Below are positions 3,966 to 34,676 of a DNA stretch of 36,786 bases, piece after piece; within the stretch, counting starts at the first letter, position 1, and each line of letters opens with the position of its first letter. Made by a program: the position numbers and the translations under genes. Origin of the DNA: Candidatus Woesebacteria bacterium GW2011_GWB1_38_8b. Its GTDB lineage: Bacteria; Patescibacteriota; Microgenomatia; UBA8517. The DNA lies in contig LBVN01000004.1 in assembly GCA_000993115.1 (NCBI GenBank), positions 1 through 36,786 of the forward strand. Reading direction: 5' to 3'. The notes beneath the pieces are model-generated. The model was not told the origin of the DNA, did no database searches, and was given only the letters and a program-made list of their open reading frames with translations.

Positions 3966-6380
3966 TTAAAGAGGATAACTGATTTTTGCGGATTGAGAAG
4001 CTGCAGGAACCGGACAATCAAGGCATACTAACGACCCCAGTGCGTCATACAAAACGCTTTGCTGACGGACCTCGACGTTTTCGGCCGGGGTGTCATCGTT
4101 CGCGATGGAATTTGTGGTTTTGTCAATCCTTACGTCAGCTCTGCCACCTTTTGAATCGGATGGCACTGAGTCTTTTAAGAAATACTCAAATCTTGTCGGA
4201 CATCCTGCACTTAACGGATCGGAAGGAAGAGCACCTGTGGTTGAACAAACACTTATTCCAACAACTCCGGTTGGTTGCTTTTGAGATGAGTGTCCGCTGT
4301 CTTTTTTGTTGTAAGTACCCGTTTCCGATTTGTCTAGGGCTTCTTTGATTATTTTGTTCCAAATAGGGGACGCTCCCGACACTCCCGAAACAGCTCCGCG
4401 CATCGGAGTATTATCGTTATTTCCAACCCAAGTTAGAACCAAAATTTGAGGAGTATAGCCAATTGTCCAGTTGTCTTTAAAGTCATTTGTGGTTCCTGTT
4501 TTTACTGACACTTCGCTGTGGCCTTTAACATTAAGAAAAGAGTTTGTACCGAAAGCCATCGAACGGGTTCCATTATCCGAAATAACGTGAGAGATAATAA
4601 ATGTTACGTTGGAGTCTAATACTTTTTCTCCCGACAACTCCAATTTTTCAAAATTATTTTCTTTCAGAACCTTGCCTTTCCAATCTTCAATTTTTATAAT
4701 TGGATTAAGATCTTCTTTTATTCCGCTGTTTGCAAGCACCCCGAATGCCGTTGCCATTTCAACCGGTTTTACTTCTCCACCTCCAAGTGTTAGTGATAAA
4801 CCATATCTGGAAGGGTCTGAGAACGATTTTATCCCCATTTTGTTTGCAAATTCAACAAAGTTTTTTAAACCGTTTAAAGCCAGAACCCGAACCGCAGGTA
4901 CGTTTAAAGAATTTCCAAGTGCATAACGAGCCTGTATCATTCCGTGGTAACTGCCGTCGTAGTTTTTCGGACAGTATTCTTTTTGACCAACAACACTAAA
5001 GCATGTGGGTATGTCCGCAAGAAGGGAAGATGCTGTAATTTTTTTATCACGAAGGGCGAGTGCGTAGTTGATTGGCTTTATTGACGAGCCCGGCTGCCGA
5101 TTTGAAAAAAGAATATTTACCTTACCGTCTTCATCCTCAGCATCATAATCTTTTGATCCGACCATAGCCAATATTTCGCCGCTTCCGGGTCTGACAACTA
5201 TAGCTGCACCATTTCCAACAGCCTGTTTTTTAAGCTTTGCTACTTCAGTTGCAACTGCATCCTGAGCAAAGCTTTGTAGATCCAAATCAAGTGTGGTGGT
5301 TACGCGGAGTCCTCCTTTTTCAACCACAGATTCCCCATATTCGTCTGAAAGAAGCTGTTTTACCCAAAGTGAAAAATGGGGGGCTTTTAGATTTTCCTGC
5401 TTGGAATACGAAATATTTTCATTTTTTGCCTTTTCCGCATCCTCTCCACTAACATATTTGTCTTCTACCATCCTACTAAGAACAAGTGCCTGTCTTTCTT
5501 TTGCGTATTCGGGATGTGCTCCGAACGGGGAATATAATGAGGGGGCAGCAGGTAGTCCTGCCAAAAGAGTTGCTTCAGCAAGGCTTAAATCTTTAGCACT
5601 TTTTCCAAAATATAGCTCGCTTGCAGCCCCTATTCCGTAGGCGGTAGAGCCGTAGGGAATTTGATTCAAATAAAGCTCAAGTATTTGGTTTTTGGAATAA
5701 ATCGTTTCAACAAATAGGGTTAGTGCAAATTCCCGAATTTTTCTCTTTACTGTTCGCTCGGGTGTTAAAAGTACATTTTTGACAAGCTGTTGAGTTAGGG
5801 TAGATCCTCCCTGAAGCCTGCCTTTGATGATAGTTTTATATAACGCACGTGTTATTCCTGTTACCGAAACGCCGTAATGCTTATAAAAATCTTTATCTTC
5901 AATTGATATGGTTGCTTCTTTTACATAATCAGGGAGGTCCTCAAGTGCAACAGGCGTACTTCTTTTATCGGAATAAATTTCAAATAAAAGTTTGCCGTTT
6001 CTGTCAAAAAGTTTTGTGGATACGGGAACACTGTCTTTGGTTAAGTTTGTAGGCAGGGGAATATCCCAGAAAAGCCAAAAGGAAATACCAAACAAAACTC
6101 CAAAATAAGCAAGTCTTTTAATCAGCTTTATTTTTTTTGTAAGGTCTTGATCAGAAGGATAAATTTGGCTTTTTAATGCTCTGAATTTCGATATTTTGGT
6201 TTTCTTAGCGTTACTTTTTATCCATGCAACCGTTTTTTTTGTTACTCCTATTCCAATCTGAAAAATATTTAATTTTGTTTTCCGCGTAATTCTTTGTATT
6301 GCTTTTGGATGTTTATTTTTTTTACTTCTATTTTTAGTCATATAAAGGTTGAATGAACCGGTATAGCGTTTTTGGTACAC
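3966..6380 (-). CDS. Second bifunctional class A penicillin-binding protein
   Basis: 804 aa; SIEDKDFYKHYGVSVTGITRA, GGSTLTQQLVKN, PGSSIKP, SLN, VKTGTTND; co-directional with the 214-3072 paralogue. Confidence 0.93.
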   Translation of the reverse strand: MYQKRYTGSFNLYMTKNRSKKNKHPKAIQRITRKTKLNIFQIGIGVTKKTVAWIKSNAKKTKISKFRALKSQIYPSDQDLTKKIKLIKRLAYFGVLFGISFWLFWDIPLPTNLTKDSVPVSTKLFDRNGKLLFEIYSDKRSTPVALEDLPDYVKEATISIEDKDFYKHYGVSVTGITRALYKTIIKGRLQGGSTLTQQLVKNVLLTPERTVKRKIREFALTLFVETIYSKNQILELYLNQIPYGSTAYGIGAASELYFGKSAKDLSLAEATLLAGLPAAPSLYSPFGAHPEYAKERQALVLSRMVEDKYVSGEDAEKAKNENISYSKQENLKAPHFSLWVKQLLSDEYGESVVEKGGLRVTTTLDLDLQSFAQDAVATEVAKLKKQAVGNGAAIVVRPGSGEILAMVGSKDYDAEDEDGKVNILFSNRQPGSSIKPINYALALRDKKITASSLLADIPTCFSVVGQKEYCPKNYDGSYHGMIQARYALGNSLNVPAVRVLALNGLKNFVEFANKMGIKSFSDPSRYGLSLTLGGGEVKPVEMATAFGVLANSGIKEDLNPIIKIEDWKGKVLKENNFEKLELSGEKVLDSNVTFIISHVISDNGTRSMAFGTNSFLNVKGHSEVSVKTGTTNDFKDNWTIGYTPQILVLTWVGNNDNTPMRGAVSGVSGASPIWNKIIKEALDKSETGTYNKKDSGHSSQKQPTGVVGISVCSTTGALPSDPLSAGCPTRFEYFLKDSVPSDSKGGRADVRIDKTTNSIANDDTPAENVEVRQQSVLYDALGSLVCLDCPVPAASQSAKISYPL

Positions 6381-20389: not shown

Positions 20390-20710
20390 TGGTTGCGGGG
20401 CTGGGAGTTGAACCCAGCCTGGGAGATTATGCATCTGTAATCTTCAGTTACCTGAAGTGTCGGACTATATCATCAACCTGTTAGACAATTTCCTTTCTAT
20501 ACATCTAATAGGTGCTCGGCGTCTAGTCTCTACGGAGTCCCGTTCGACTTATCTCGTGGTGTTGCCCCGAGTTTTATCGAAGGGTTCCCTCGGTATTGTC
20601 CTTAAAAATACTAAAGGGTGTCCACCGATATAGCCAAGTTTGCTACGACACATTACTGTGAAGAGGGCCCATAACTACTAGCCTCCCGTGCAGCCGTACA
20701 CTACCCCGCA
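20390..20710 (-). tRNA. tRNA-Met(CAU)-like gene interrupted by a group I intron
   Basis: Minus-strand exon 1 20710-20680 (TGCGGGG TA GTGT ACGGCT GCAC G GGAGG CT), exon 2 20431-20394 (CATAA TCTCC CAGG CTGGG TTCAACT CCCAG CCCCGCA) + A73 + CCA (20392-20390). Acceptor 7/7 paired; joined anticodon loop CTCATAA. Confidence 0.88.
20432..20679 (-). other. Group I intron (248 nt) in tRNA anticodon loop
   Basis: 5' exon ends in U33; intron ends in G (...ACAGATG|CATAA). R/S-like core elements GAGACTAGAC and GATGATATAGTCC, which can form P7 (GACTA/TAGTC). Confidence 0.85.
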
Positions 20711-20796
20711 TGTAAAGGAACAATGGTAATTATATTTGCTTTTAAAGAAAATAGCAATACAGTTTGTACTGGTATACTTGGTATATAATAACTTGA

Positions 20797-21483
20797 ATGG
20801 CAAAATCAAAAGAAAAATTAGAGGCTATTAAATTACGAAGTGGCGGAGAAAGTATCAAAGTGATTGCAAAAAATCTAAATGTGTCTCCGGGATCGGTTAG
20901 TAGCTGGTGCAAGAATGTAAAATTAACCAAAGAACAAATACACAAACTAGAATTAAGGGCAAAAGATCCTTATTATGGCAAGAGGCTTTCATATTCACTT
21001 AATCAACAAAGAATTAGGAAAGAAAAAACAAAAAAGCTACTAAATGAAGGGATAAAAGAGGTTGGAGAGTTGAATGATAGAGAATTTTTCTTGACTGGGG
21101 CTGCTTTGTATTGGGCAGAGGGGTTTAAAAAAGATAGTCAAGCTGGTTTAGCGAGTTTAGATCCGATCATGATTAAATTTTTTATTAAGTGGCTAAAATT
21201 GTGTTTTGGGTATAGTAATAATGATTTATCTTTTCGGATTACACTAAACGAAAGTCATAAATATAGACTTAAAGATATAGAGGGATTCTGGCAGAATTTG
21301 TTGGGAGTAGATAAAACTTATTTTCAGAAACCTTATTTTCAAAAAACAGTATGGAAAAAGGTTTATGAGAAGCCTGAAAATTATAAAGGAATACTACGGG
21401 TGAAAGTTAGAAAGAGTACAGATTTCTTGAGAAAAATACATGGATTTATTGAAGGGTTGAGATTAGAGGCTGAATTGGAGTAA
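20797..21483 (+). CDS. HTH + LAGLIDADG-like homing endonuclease-like protein
   Basis: 228 aa; N-terminal HTH (IKVIAKNLNVSPGSVSSWCKNV), then FFLTGAALYWAEGFKKDS..LASLDPIMIKFFIKWL, LAGLIDADG-like helix. Confidence 0.55.
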   Translation: MAKSKEKLEAIKLRSGGESIKVIAKNLNVSPGSVSSWCKNVKLTKEQIHKLELRAKDPYYGKRLSYSLNQQRIRKEKTKKLLNEGIKEVGELNDREFFLTGAALYWAEGFKKDSQAGLASLDPIMIKFFIKWLKLCFGYSNNDLSFRITLNESHKYRLKDIEGFWQNLLGVDKTYFQKPYFQKTVWKKVYEKPENYKGILRVKVRKSTDFLRKIHGFIEGLRLEAELE

Positions 21484-33698: not shown

Positions 33699-34676
33699 AT
33701 GGGTTTACAAATTATGAAAGAATTTAAAAAAGAAGAACTTACAAAACTATTTCGCCCTCATGATAATTCAAATGGGGAAGATAACGGTCAGATTACAATT
33801 ATCGGTGGGTCCGAACTTTTCCACGGGGCTCCGATTTTAGCTTTAAAAACCGCATCAAGAATTGTTGATATGGTTTTTTTTGCAACCCCTGAAAAATCCG
33901 TTGGGATGGTTGCGGAATTAATTAAATCAAAATTAATGTCTTTTATCTGGATTCCCTGGGACGATTTATCAGCTTATATTGAAAAATCCGATGCGATTTT
34001 GATCGGACCGGGTTTTATGAGATTCGGGAGCGAAAAAACCCCCGAAAGTGATCGGCATTTTGACAATCATAATGAAGGAAAAACAACAAGAGAAATTACA
34101 GAAAAACTTTTGAAAAAGTTTCCACTTAAAAAATGGGTGATTGACGCAGGATCCTTACAGACAATGGATGCTGAATGGATACCTGAAAATGCAATAATTA
34201 CACCGAATAAAAAAGAATTCGAAACGCTTTTCGGTGCAAAGTTTTCTACCGGTTTAGCAACTGAAATGGCAAAAAAATACAAATGCATTATTGTTGCAAA
34301 AGGTCCCGAATCTTATGTTACAAGCGCAGACGAAACAGTTTTAATTAAGGGTGGAAATGCTGGTATGACAAAAGGGGGGACGGGCGATATTTTAGCCGGT
34401 TTGACAGTTGCGCTATTGGCAAAAAATGAGCCATTCCTATCAGCCTGTGCAGCAAGTTACATAGAAAAAGCTGCTGCCGATGAACTTTATTGCGGATATC
34501 AAGAAGACCACGGGCTTCAGCCTGTGGATGAATTGAGCTCCGATATGTCGTCCTCCTTAGGGAAACCCCGCTCTTCAGGGCGGGGAGGACGTCATAAAAA
34601 AGTTGGAACAAATTATAACGCTGATGACTTGGCCGATTTTATTCCTGAGTATTTTAAAATGGTGTTAGCCGATTAA
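33699..34676 (+). CDS. ADP/ATP-dependent NAD(P)HX dehydratase (YjeF C-terminal/NnrD-like)
   Basis: DNGQITIIGGSELFHGAPILALKTASRI, WVIDAGSLQ, ITPNKKEFETLF, NAGMTKGGTGDILAGLTVALLA. Confidence 0.88.
   Translation: MGLQIMKEFKKEELTKLFRPHDNSNGEDNGQITIIGGSELFHGAPILALKTASRIVDMVFFATPEKSVGMVAELIKSKLMSFIWIPWDDLSAYIEKSDAILIGPGFMRFGSEKTPESDRHFDNHNEGKTTREITEKLLKKFPLKKWVIDAGSLQTMDAEWIPENAIITPNKKEFETLFGAKFSTGLATEMAKKYKCIIVAKGPESYVTSADETVLIKGGNAGMTKGGTGDILAGLTVALLAKNEPFLSACAASYIEKAAADELYCGYQEDHGLQPVDELSSDMSSSLGKPRSSGRGGRHKKVGTNYNADDLADFIPEYFKMVLAD
34508..34590 (+). mobile_element. IS200/IS605-end-like hairpin pair (non-autonomous/PATE-like remnant) inside the NnrD-like ORF
   Basis: Hairpin CCACGGGC-TTCA-GCCTGTGG (34508-34527); hairpin CCCCGCTC-TTCA-GGGCGGGG (34566-34585) nested in GTCCTCC/GGAGGAC (34550-34556/34584-34590) with TTAGGGAAA between, typical of IS605-family right ends. 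Confidence 0.6.

What the first reader, a model, noticed from the sequence alone, without database searches (positions are those of the whole stretch)
34505..34595. IS200/IS605-like palindromes carried in frame inside an NAD(P)HX dehydratase gene
Two hairpins with identical TTCA loops, one nested in GTCCTCC/GGAGGAC, look like IS605-type ends. They add an HGLQPVDELSSDMSSSLGKPRSSGRGGRHKK segment between the conserved 'AADELY' helix and a normal-looking C-terminus (VGTNYNADDLADFIPEYF). The ORF stays open, suggesting a small non-autonomous element (PATE-like) tolerated within a protein, or an omegaRNA-like remnant.
Basis: partly seen in the sequence, partly recalled or inferred. Interest (0 to 1): 0.7.

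Follow-up and report, generated by a model that had tools for sequence, protein, structure and literature searches.

The report
In-frame palindromic jumping element in CPR
A 105-letter folded, selfish piece of DNA has jumped into a metabolic-repair gene of an uncultured, very small bacterium without breaking it, and dozens of relatives of the same piece sit in related bacteria, often also harmlessly in frame inside genes, including a tRNA-charging gene and a DNA-repair gene.

Summary
A 105-nt insert (34491-34595) carrying two hairpins sits in frame in an nnrD gene. Relatives have the exact empty site: GATGAACTTTAT|AAAAAAGT(C/T)GG, with no separable duplication. It belongs to a dispersed repeat family of Microgenomates/Woesebacteria (CPR). 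The own genome holds 6 good copies, and about 90 copies were examined. The secondary structure shows very strong compensatory covariation. At least 15 copies interrupt ORFs in frame, including ArgS, a P-type ATPase and, in this same genome, UvrC (antisense). Relatives' UvrC and NnrD lack the segment. Insertion is 3' of TTAT, the right end is TCAT, and tetranucleotides 5' of each hairpin match the IS608 cleavage-site/guide grammar. The flanking target base covaries with the element's guide base: TTAT with A in 80/80 copies, TCAT with G in 10/11 (Fisher p about 2e-12). Best reading: a non-autonomous, PATE-like element moved as single-stranded DNA by a Y1/HUH transposase in trans, tolerated in genes like Rickettsia palindromic elements. 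The omegaRNA-remnant idea is not supported (no TnpB detected in this genome). No autonomous partner was found, and several copy-bearing genomes lack a detectable Y1 transposase, so the mobilising enzyme is inferred. New variant of a known kind.

The parts
33699..34676 (+). host gene: NAD(P)H-hydrate dehydratase (nnrD-like), 325 aa, intact reading frame
   Evidence: Pfam PF01256 E 1.2e-31 over aa 33-263; 52-70% identity to relatives
34487..34490 (+). target tetranucleotide TTAT (left cleavage-site equivalent, CL), part of the host gene (end of Leu-Tyr codons CTT TAT)
   Evidence: present in the empty sites GATGAACTTTAT|AAAAAAGTCGGA (L005) and GATGAACTTTAT|AAAAAAGTTGGG (L019)
34491..34595 (+). 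inserted palindromic element, 105 nt = 35 codons, in frame
   Evidence: absent from 16 aligned relatives; covariance-model hit 34487-34597, 116.7 bits, E 2e-21; 88% DNA identity to a copy in G014
34493..34502 (+). 5' arm of the outer stem of stem-loop 1 (CGGATATCAA), pairs with 34533-34542 (TTGAGCTCCG); carries the compensatory CGG/CCG variant of the family's CAG/CTG
   Evidence: alignment A1; helix 1 columns 7-16/48-57, 6 of 9 pairs with changes on both sides
34504..34507 (+). left guide equivalent (GL), AAGA here, AAAA in the family consensus, immediately 5' of hairpin 1
   Evidence: position as the IS608 guide; first base covaries with second base of the target
34508..34527 (+). hairpin 1 (CCACGGGC TTCA GCCTGTGG)
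   Evidence: fold; helix 2 has changes on both sides at 7 of 8 pairs
34549..34556 (+). 5' basal arm of stem-loop 2 (CGTCCTCC), pairs with 34584-34591 (GGAGGACG)
   Evidence: helix 3 has changes on both sides at 3 of 8 pairs, e.g. A-U to G-C in 7 sequences
34562..34565 (+). right guide equivalent (GR), GAAA, immediately 5' of hairpin 2
   Evidence: position as the IS608 right guide GAAT (PMC5934647); inferred role
34566..34585 (+). hairpin 2 (CCCCGCTC TTCA GGGCGGGG)
   Evidence: fold; helix 5 has changes on both sides at 5 of 6 pairs
34592..34595 (+). right end TCAT (right cleavage-site equivalent, CR)
   Evidence: last conserved bases of nearly all copies; junction with host DNA follows directly

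Best explanation
The segment is one copy of a non-autonomous, structure-conserved palindromic mobile element of Microgenomates (CPR) genomes. Shown: it inserted into nnrD directly 3' of TTAT, without a separable target duplication, as 105 nt. Because its length is a multiple of three and one frame is free of stops, it added a 35-residue tail-proximal loop instead of breaking the gene. Inferred: it moves as folded single-stranded DNA, its two hairpins recognised by a Y1/HUH transposase (IS200/IS605 TnpA or the related RAYT type) acting in trans. The bases 5' of the left hairpin would choose the target tetranucleotide by base pairing, as in IS608. Insertions in genes persist only where they read through in frame; otherwise selection removes them. 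The peptide itself is probably neutral ballast.
For: Exact empty sites in relatives at protein and DNA level. Dispersed family: 6 strong copies in the own genome, 64 of 374 genomes of the class, and all 46 stretches of an exact-pattern scan of 84,980 species come from records labelled Woesebacteria, Blackburnbacteria or other Microgenomates/Patescibacteria, plus one labelled only 'bacterium'. Near-identical copies within single genomes (96-98% among most G013 copies, 95-97% in G069) point to recent spread. Covariation: 22 of 34 pairs have changes on both sides; covariation score 0.370 against 0.137 shuffled and at most 0.095 slid. Guide/target covariation across insertions: TTAT flank with guide base A in 80/80, TCAT flank with G in 10/11, p 1.7e-12, at sites with unrelated flanks; geometry as IS608 (PMC5934647). 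In-frame insertion: 15 of 24 genic copies read through; with at least 40 codons on both sides 13 of 16 against 4.0 expected. Hosts include ArgS (inside DALR_1), a P-type ATPase, DUF192, and the own UvrC. Copies avoid genes: 28% genic against 71% of random TTAT sites. AlphaFold keeps the NnrD fold and leaves residues 277-304 unstructured (pLDDT below 50).
Against: No autonomous element with the same ends was found. Five copy-bearing genomes (G027, G007, G015, G065, G002) show no Y1 transposase at E 0.1; the own genome's single Y1 protein is RAYT-like with other palindromes at its ends. The right-hand guide pairing does not covary clearly. The target/guide covariation may reflect few changes of guide, and no empty site was seen for a TCAT insertion. 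The shared AT at TTAT/TCAT leaves a 2-nt ambiguity, so a 2-bp duplication is not excluded. Translation and activity of the interrupted proteins are not shown. Nine of 24 genic copies are disrupted, mostly in short ORFs or near the N-terminus.
Confidence: 0.72

Rival explanations
1. The segment is a remnant of an IS605-type transposon: the tnpB-side right end or an omegaRNA, left after loss of the transposase genes.
For: Terminal hairpins and the GGAGGAC foot resemble IS605 right ends (from memory); one relative (G031) has canonical tnpA and tnpB genes.
Against: TnpB (PF07282) is absent from the own genome and from 53 of 56 genomes searched. Copies are whole, about 100-115 nt, with two defined ends and recent amplification, so the short form is the mobile unit. 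The region upstream of G031's tnpA shows no related end.
Confidence: 0.08
2. A MITE of a DDE transposase with short imperfect terminal inverted repeats (TTATRACA) and a 2-bp AT (or TA) duplication.
For: Both ends begin TTATRACA when read inwards and AT is shared at both borders.
Against: Left TTAT or TCAT covaries with an internal base 5' of the hairpin, which DDE targeting does not predict; conserved internal hairpins with heavy covariation; the base after GTCAT is free, so no TA duplication.
Confidence: 0.12
3. REP/BIME-like element served by the RAYT (TnpA_REP) proteins that are common in these genomes, rather than by an IS200-type TnpA. This is a sub-case of the best explanation (which Y1 enzyme), not exclusive of it.
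For: Y1 proteins, nearly all RAYT-like in length, occur in 34 of 56 genomes searched, one in the own genome; CGTC/TGTC-tagged REPs including Rickettsia RPE-4/6 have no known transposase and also enter uvr genes (PMC3733652); this element ends GGA(C/T)GTC.
Against: RAYT genes whose flanks were read carry different short palindromes; tetranucleotide guide/target pairing is more IS200-like than the GTAG/CT system; several copy-bearing genomes have no detectable RAYT.
Confidence: 0.3
4. A functional structured RNA or a co-opted protein loop under positive function rather than a selfish insertion.
For: Strong structural covariation; presence in conserved genes.
Against: The hosts are unrelated proteins and the insert is absent in the orthologues checked; genes are avoided overall; the model shows a disordered loop.
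Confidence: 0.05

Closest known systems
Rickettsia palindromic elements (RPE)
   Same: 105-146 bp, stem-loop forming, dispersed, with an open frame, inserted in frame in many unrelated conserved protein genes, host protein tolerated (PMC2229807); RPE-4/6-type repeats also in uvr genes (PMC3733652)
   Different: Other phylum; homology to RPE sequences not tested; here two adjacent stem-loops, fixed TTAT/TCAT target, guide/target covariation, and in-frame reading in several frames and in antisense
PATEs (palindrome-associated transposable elements) of Haloquadratum
   Same: No transposase gene, palindromes near both ends, no target duplication, IS605-like (PMC3119063)
   Different: No parent IS605 transposon with the same ends found; short imperfect terminal inverted similarity; in-frame insertion in genes
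IS608 / IS200-IS605 family
   Same: Insertion 3' of a tetranucleotide kept in the left flank, hairpin near each end, tetranucleotide guide 5' of each hairpin; CL/GL TTAC/AAAG and CR/GR TCAA/GAAT in IS608 against TTAT/AAAA and TCAT/GAAA here (PMC5934647)
   Different: No TnpA or TnpB encoded; about 105 nt in all
REP/BIME sequences with RAYT (TnpA_REP)
   Same: Paired palindromes, single-strand recognition inferred, RAYT genes present in many of these genomes
   Different: No GTAG tag at these hairpins; RAYT genes here have other palindromes; element boundaries are fixed

Membership tests
PATE | palindromic sequences close to both termini | tested here: met
   hairpins 1 and 2, covariation in all helices
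PATE | no target duplication | tested here: met
   empty site TTAT|AAAAAAG in L005 and L019; 2-nt AT ambiguity remains
PATE | no terminal inverted repeats | tested here: inconclusive
   ends TTATAACA / TTATGACA are imperfectly inverted, partly in the target
PATE | palindromes related to those of IS605-type transposons of the genome | tested here: not met
   no full-length element with these ends found; Y1/TnpB loci lack them
IS200/IS605 family (autonomous) | encodes a Y1 transposase TnpA | tested here: not met
   105 nt, no such gene
IS200/IS605-type mobility | target tetranucleotide chosen by pairing with a guide 5' of the left hairpin | tested here: met
   flank/guide covariation 80/80 and 10/11, p 1.7e-12; bioinformatic only
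IS200/IS605-type mobility | binding and cleavage of the folded single strand by the transposase | not testable with these tools
   needs biochemistry
omegaRNA / TnpB system | tnpB gene in the element or genome | tested here: not met
   PF07282 no match in the own genome (genome 86% complete); no Rfam match on the segment
Rickettsia palindromic element | short palindromic repeat inserted in frame in several unrelated genes | tested here: met
   15 read-through genic copies, among them ArgS and UvrC
Rickettsia palindromic element | sequence homology to RPE-1 to RPE-8 | not tested
   no RPE sequences fetched; the copies found lie almost entirely within one class of Patescibacteria
Rickettsia palindromic element | insert is translated and the host protein works | not testable with these tools
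   only predicted structure

The most novel reading that the evidence does not exclude
A CPR-wide class of coding palindromic elements moved as single-stranded DNA with IS608-like programmable target choice, whose sequence is under selection to keep a stop-free frame of length 3n so that it can live inside essential genes. This would be a gene-tolerant transposon strategy and would give a concrete mechanism for the long-unexplained mobility of Rickettsia-type coding palindromes.
Probability: 0.3. Interest if true: 0.8.

Novelty: new variant of a known kind. Interest (0 to 1): 0.6.

Why it matters
Palindromic selfish DNA inside working protein genes is best known from Rickettsia, and how those elements move is unknown. 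Here a second bacterial group, distantly related and with tiny genomes, shows the same habit in essential and repair genes, and the copies carry a readable signature of guide-directed insertion. That makes the mechanism testable in vitro and warns annotators that CPR proteins can carry 35-37-residue mobile-element loops.

Tried and rejected
A DNA search of the own genome found only the window copy plus a 24-nt partial match; the covariance model was needed to see the other five. Full-length parent sought by: one-ended copies (L127, L129, L135, L151, L154), which looked short, truncated, or (L135/L065) split around an unrelated NUDIX gene; Y1 loci with +-1.5 kb flanks, none with the element; IS605-type locus of G031, different upstream sequence. 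Tight RAYT association rejected: other palindromes flank the RAYT genes that could be read. Exact left-end pattern in viral contigs: none. Literature searches for such elements in CPR or Microgenomates returned nothing on point, but the library is open-access only. A preference for 3n length (58 of 87 copies) was considered as selection for reading frame, but shared descent of 105/108-nt forms explains it as well. Right-end cleavage/guide covariation was looked for and is unclear. One notebook entry states 16 read-through copies; the correct number is 15 (noted in the last entry).

Full report
What is there. Window ORF 33699-34676 (+) encodes a 325-aa NAD(P)H-hydrate dehydratase (Carb_kinase). 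Its relatives read AADELY|KKVGTNYNADDL; the window protein has 35 extra residues at that point. At DNA level two relatives keep the empty site letter for letter on the left and nearly so on the right: GATGAACTTTAT|AAAAAAGTCGGA (L005) and GATGAACTTTAT|AAAAAAGTTGGG (L019), against GATGAACTTTAT[105 nt]AAAAAAGTTGGA in the window. The insert is therefore 34491-34595. It folds into two stem-loops, well beyond chance.

It is a mobile family. A DNA search of relatives found about 100-nt matches at 72-92% identity all over related genomes. An alignment of 48 copies gives a consensus TTATAACAGCATTCAAGAAAACC[hp1]GGATGAATTGAACGCTGATATGTCATCCTCCTTTAGAGGAAACCCCGC[hp2]GCGGGGAGGATGTCAT. A covariance model finds six good copies in the own genome (E 2e-21 to 1e-10), copies in 64 of 374 genomes of the class and very few elsewhere in the phylum (two genomes outside the class, E about 1e-6). 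An exact left-end pattern gave 46 stretches among 84,980 species, all from Woesebacteria, Blackburnbacteria or other Microgenomates/Patescibacteria records except one labelled only 'bacterium'. Most copies within G013 are 96-98% alike and those in G069 95-97%, so movement is recent in places; the own genome's copies are older and diverged.

The structure is what is conserved. 22 of 34 pairs show changes on both sides; 95.7% of cells pair, against 82.8% in shuffles and at most 45% when slid. The window copy itself carries a compensatory variant (CGG/CCG for CAG/CTG) in the outer stem.

How it inserts. The left flank is TTAT in most copies and the element ends in (G)TCAT; no duplication separable from a 2-nt AT ambiguity is seen. 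This is the layout of IS608: insertion 3' of TTAC retained in the left flank, right site TCAA, and guides AAAG and GAAT directly 5' of the two hairpins (PMC5934647). Here the same positions read TTAT with AAAA and TCAT with GAAA, which keeps the position-4 complement (C-G becomes T-A, A-T becomes T-A). A natural test comes from variant copies: where the flank is TCAT, the guide begins with G in 10 of 11 copies; where it is TTAT, it begins with A in 80 of 80 (p 1.7e-12). The ten matching variant sites have unrelated flanks and lie in five genomes, one being the own genome. Because this base belongs to the target and not to the element under every possible reading of the junction (shown for nnrD; assumed for TCAT copies), the association argues for target choice by base pairing. 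The pairing scheme (second target base with first guide base) is my inference; PMC8266576 speaks of linear and cross complementarity. The right end does not give an equally clean signal.

What it does to genes. Of 87 copies with flanks, 24 lie in ORFs of 100 aa or more (28%; random TTAT sites 71%), so genes are mostly avoided or cleared. Of these 24, 15 read through in frame. For ORFs with at least 40 codons on both sides it is 13 of 16 against 4.0 expected from the frames that happen to be open. Hosts include arginyl-tRNA synthetase (insert inside DALR_1), a P-type cation ATPase, a PGA_cap protein, a DUF192 protein, a GIY-YIG protein, a dTDP-sugar epimerase family protein and membrane glycosyltransferase-like proteins. 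In the own genome a second copy (C7:5603-5719) lies antisense and in frame in uvrC; the eight relatives aligned lack it. In the sense orientation two entry phases dominate, both giving (V/G)DELNADMSSS in the middle. AlphaFold keeps the NnrD fold and leaves residues 277-304 unstructured (pLDDT below 50).

Who moves it is open. No element with these ends and a transposase was found. TnpB is missing in the own genome and in 53 of the 56 genomes searched. Y1 genes, nearly all RAYT-like, occur in 34 of 56 and once in the own genome, but those whose flanks were read bear their own palindromes, and five copy-bearing genomes have none detectable. Mobilisation in trans by a Y1/HUH enzyme is therefore an inference from target grammar and structure, at about 0.65; the insertion history and family are near certain.

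Known comparisons. Rickettsia palindromic elements are the closest in habit (PMC2229807), PATEs in build (PMC3119063), IS608 in inferred target choice. CGTC/TGTC-tagged REPs, which include two RPEs and also enter uvr genes without a known transposase (PMC3733652), are a suggestive parallel, since this element ends GGA(C/T)GTCAT. I file it as a new variant: it works like an RPE and like a PATE, but failed or could not take one defining test of each.

Noticed in passing
window 20441-20757 (-): Group I intron (Rfam RF00028, 67.3 bits) next to a 228-aa ORF with an N-terminal helix-turn-helix look (20797-21483 +); the interrupted gene was not identified.
   Followed up: partly
L003:3107-3230 (own genome C1 about 60106-60230) and L065 minus strand about 5975-5890: A second two-hairpin repeat family, [hp]GAAGCAAGAATC..TCGTCGACAAAATACCATGG..GTGGTAGTTTAT, with a GTAG motif; in G013 several copies of the main element sit at the TTTAT of similar GTAG(TT)TAT sequences.
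   Followed up: no
L109 (own genome C3, RAYT-like gene 1264-1953 -): RAYT-like Y1 transposase gene closely flanked on both sides by its own short palindrome (CTACGAGGGATAATCCCTCGTA type); the same layout with other palindromes recurs at many RAYT genes of relatives.
   Followed up: partly
L158 7469 (+), L161 3953 (-), L134, L139, L155: Other hairpin repeats (e.g. ..GATACTGAGCTTGTCGAAGTATCAT.., or CCGCCTGCTTAGCTGCGCAAGCTAGCGGGC) are inserted inside copies of the element.
   Followed up: no
L065 (G013:C30) 5097-6104 (-): An element copy split by about 0.9 kb that holds a complete NUDIX hydrolase gene and a copy of the second repeat family.
   Followed up: no
L238 1421-1555 and 1704-1820 (own genome C7): Two element copies with the same hairpin 1 sequence lie 148 nt apart, one inside the 3' part of uvrC and one just downstream of it, suggesting local duplication.
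   Followed up: partly
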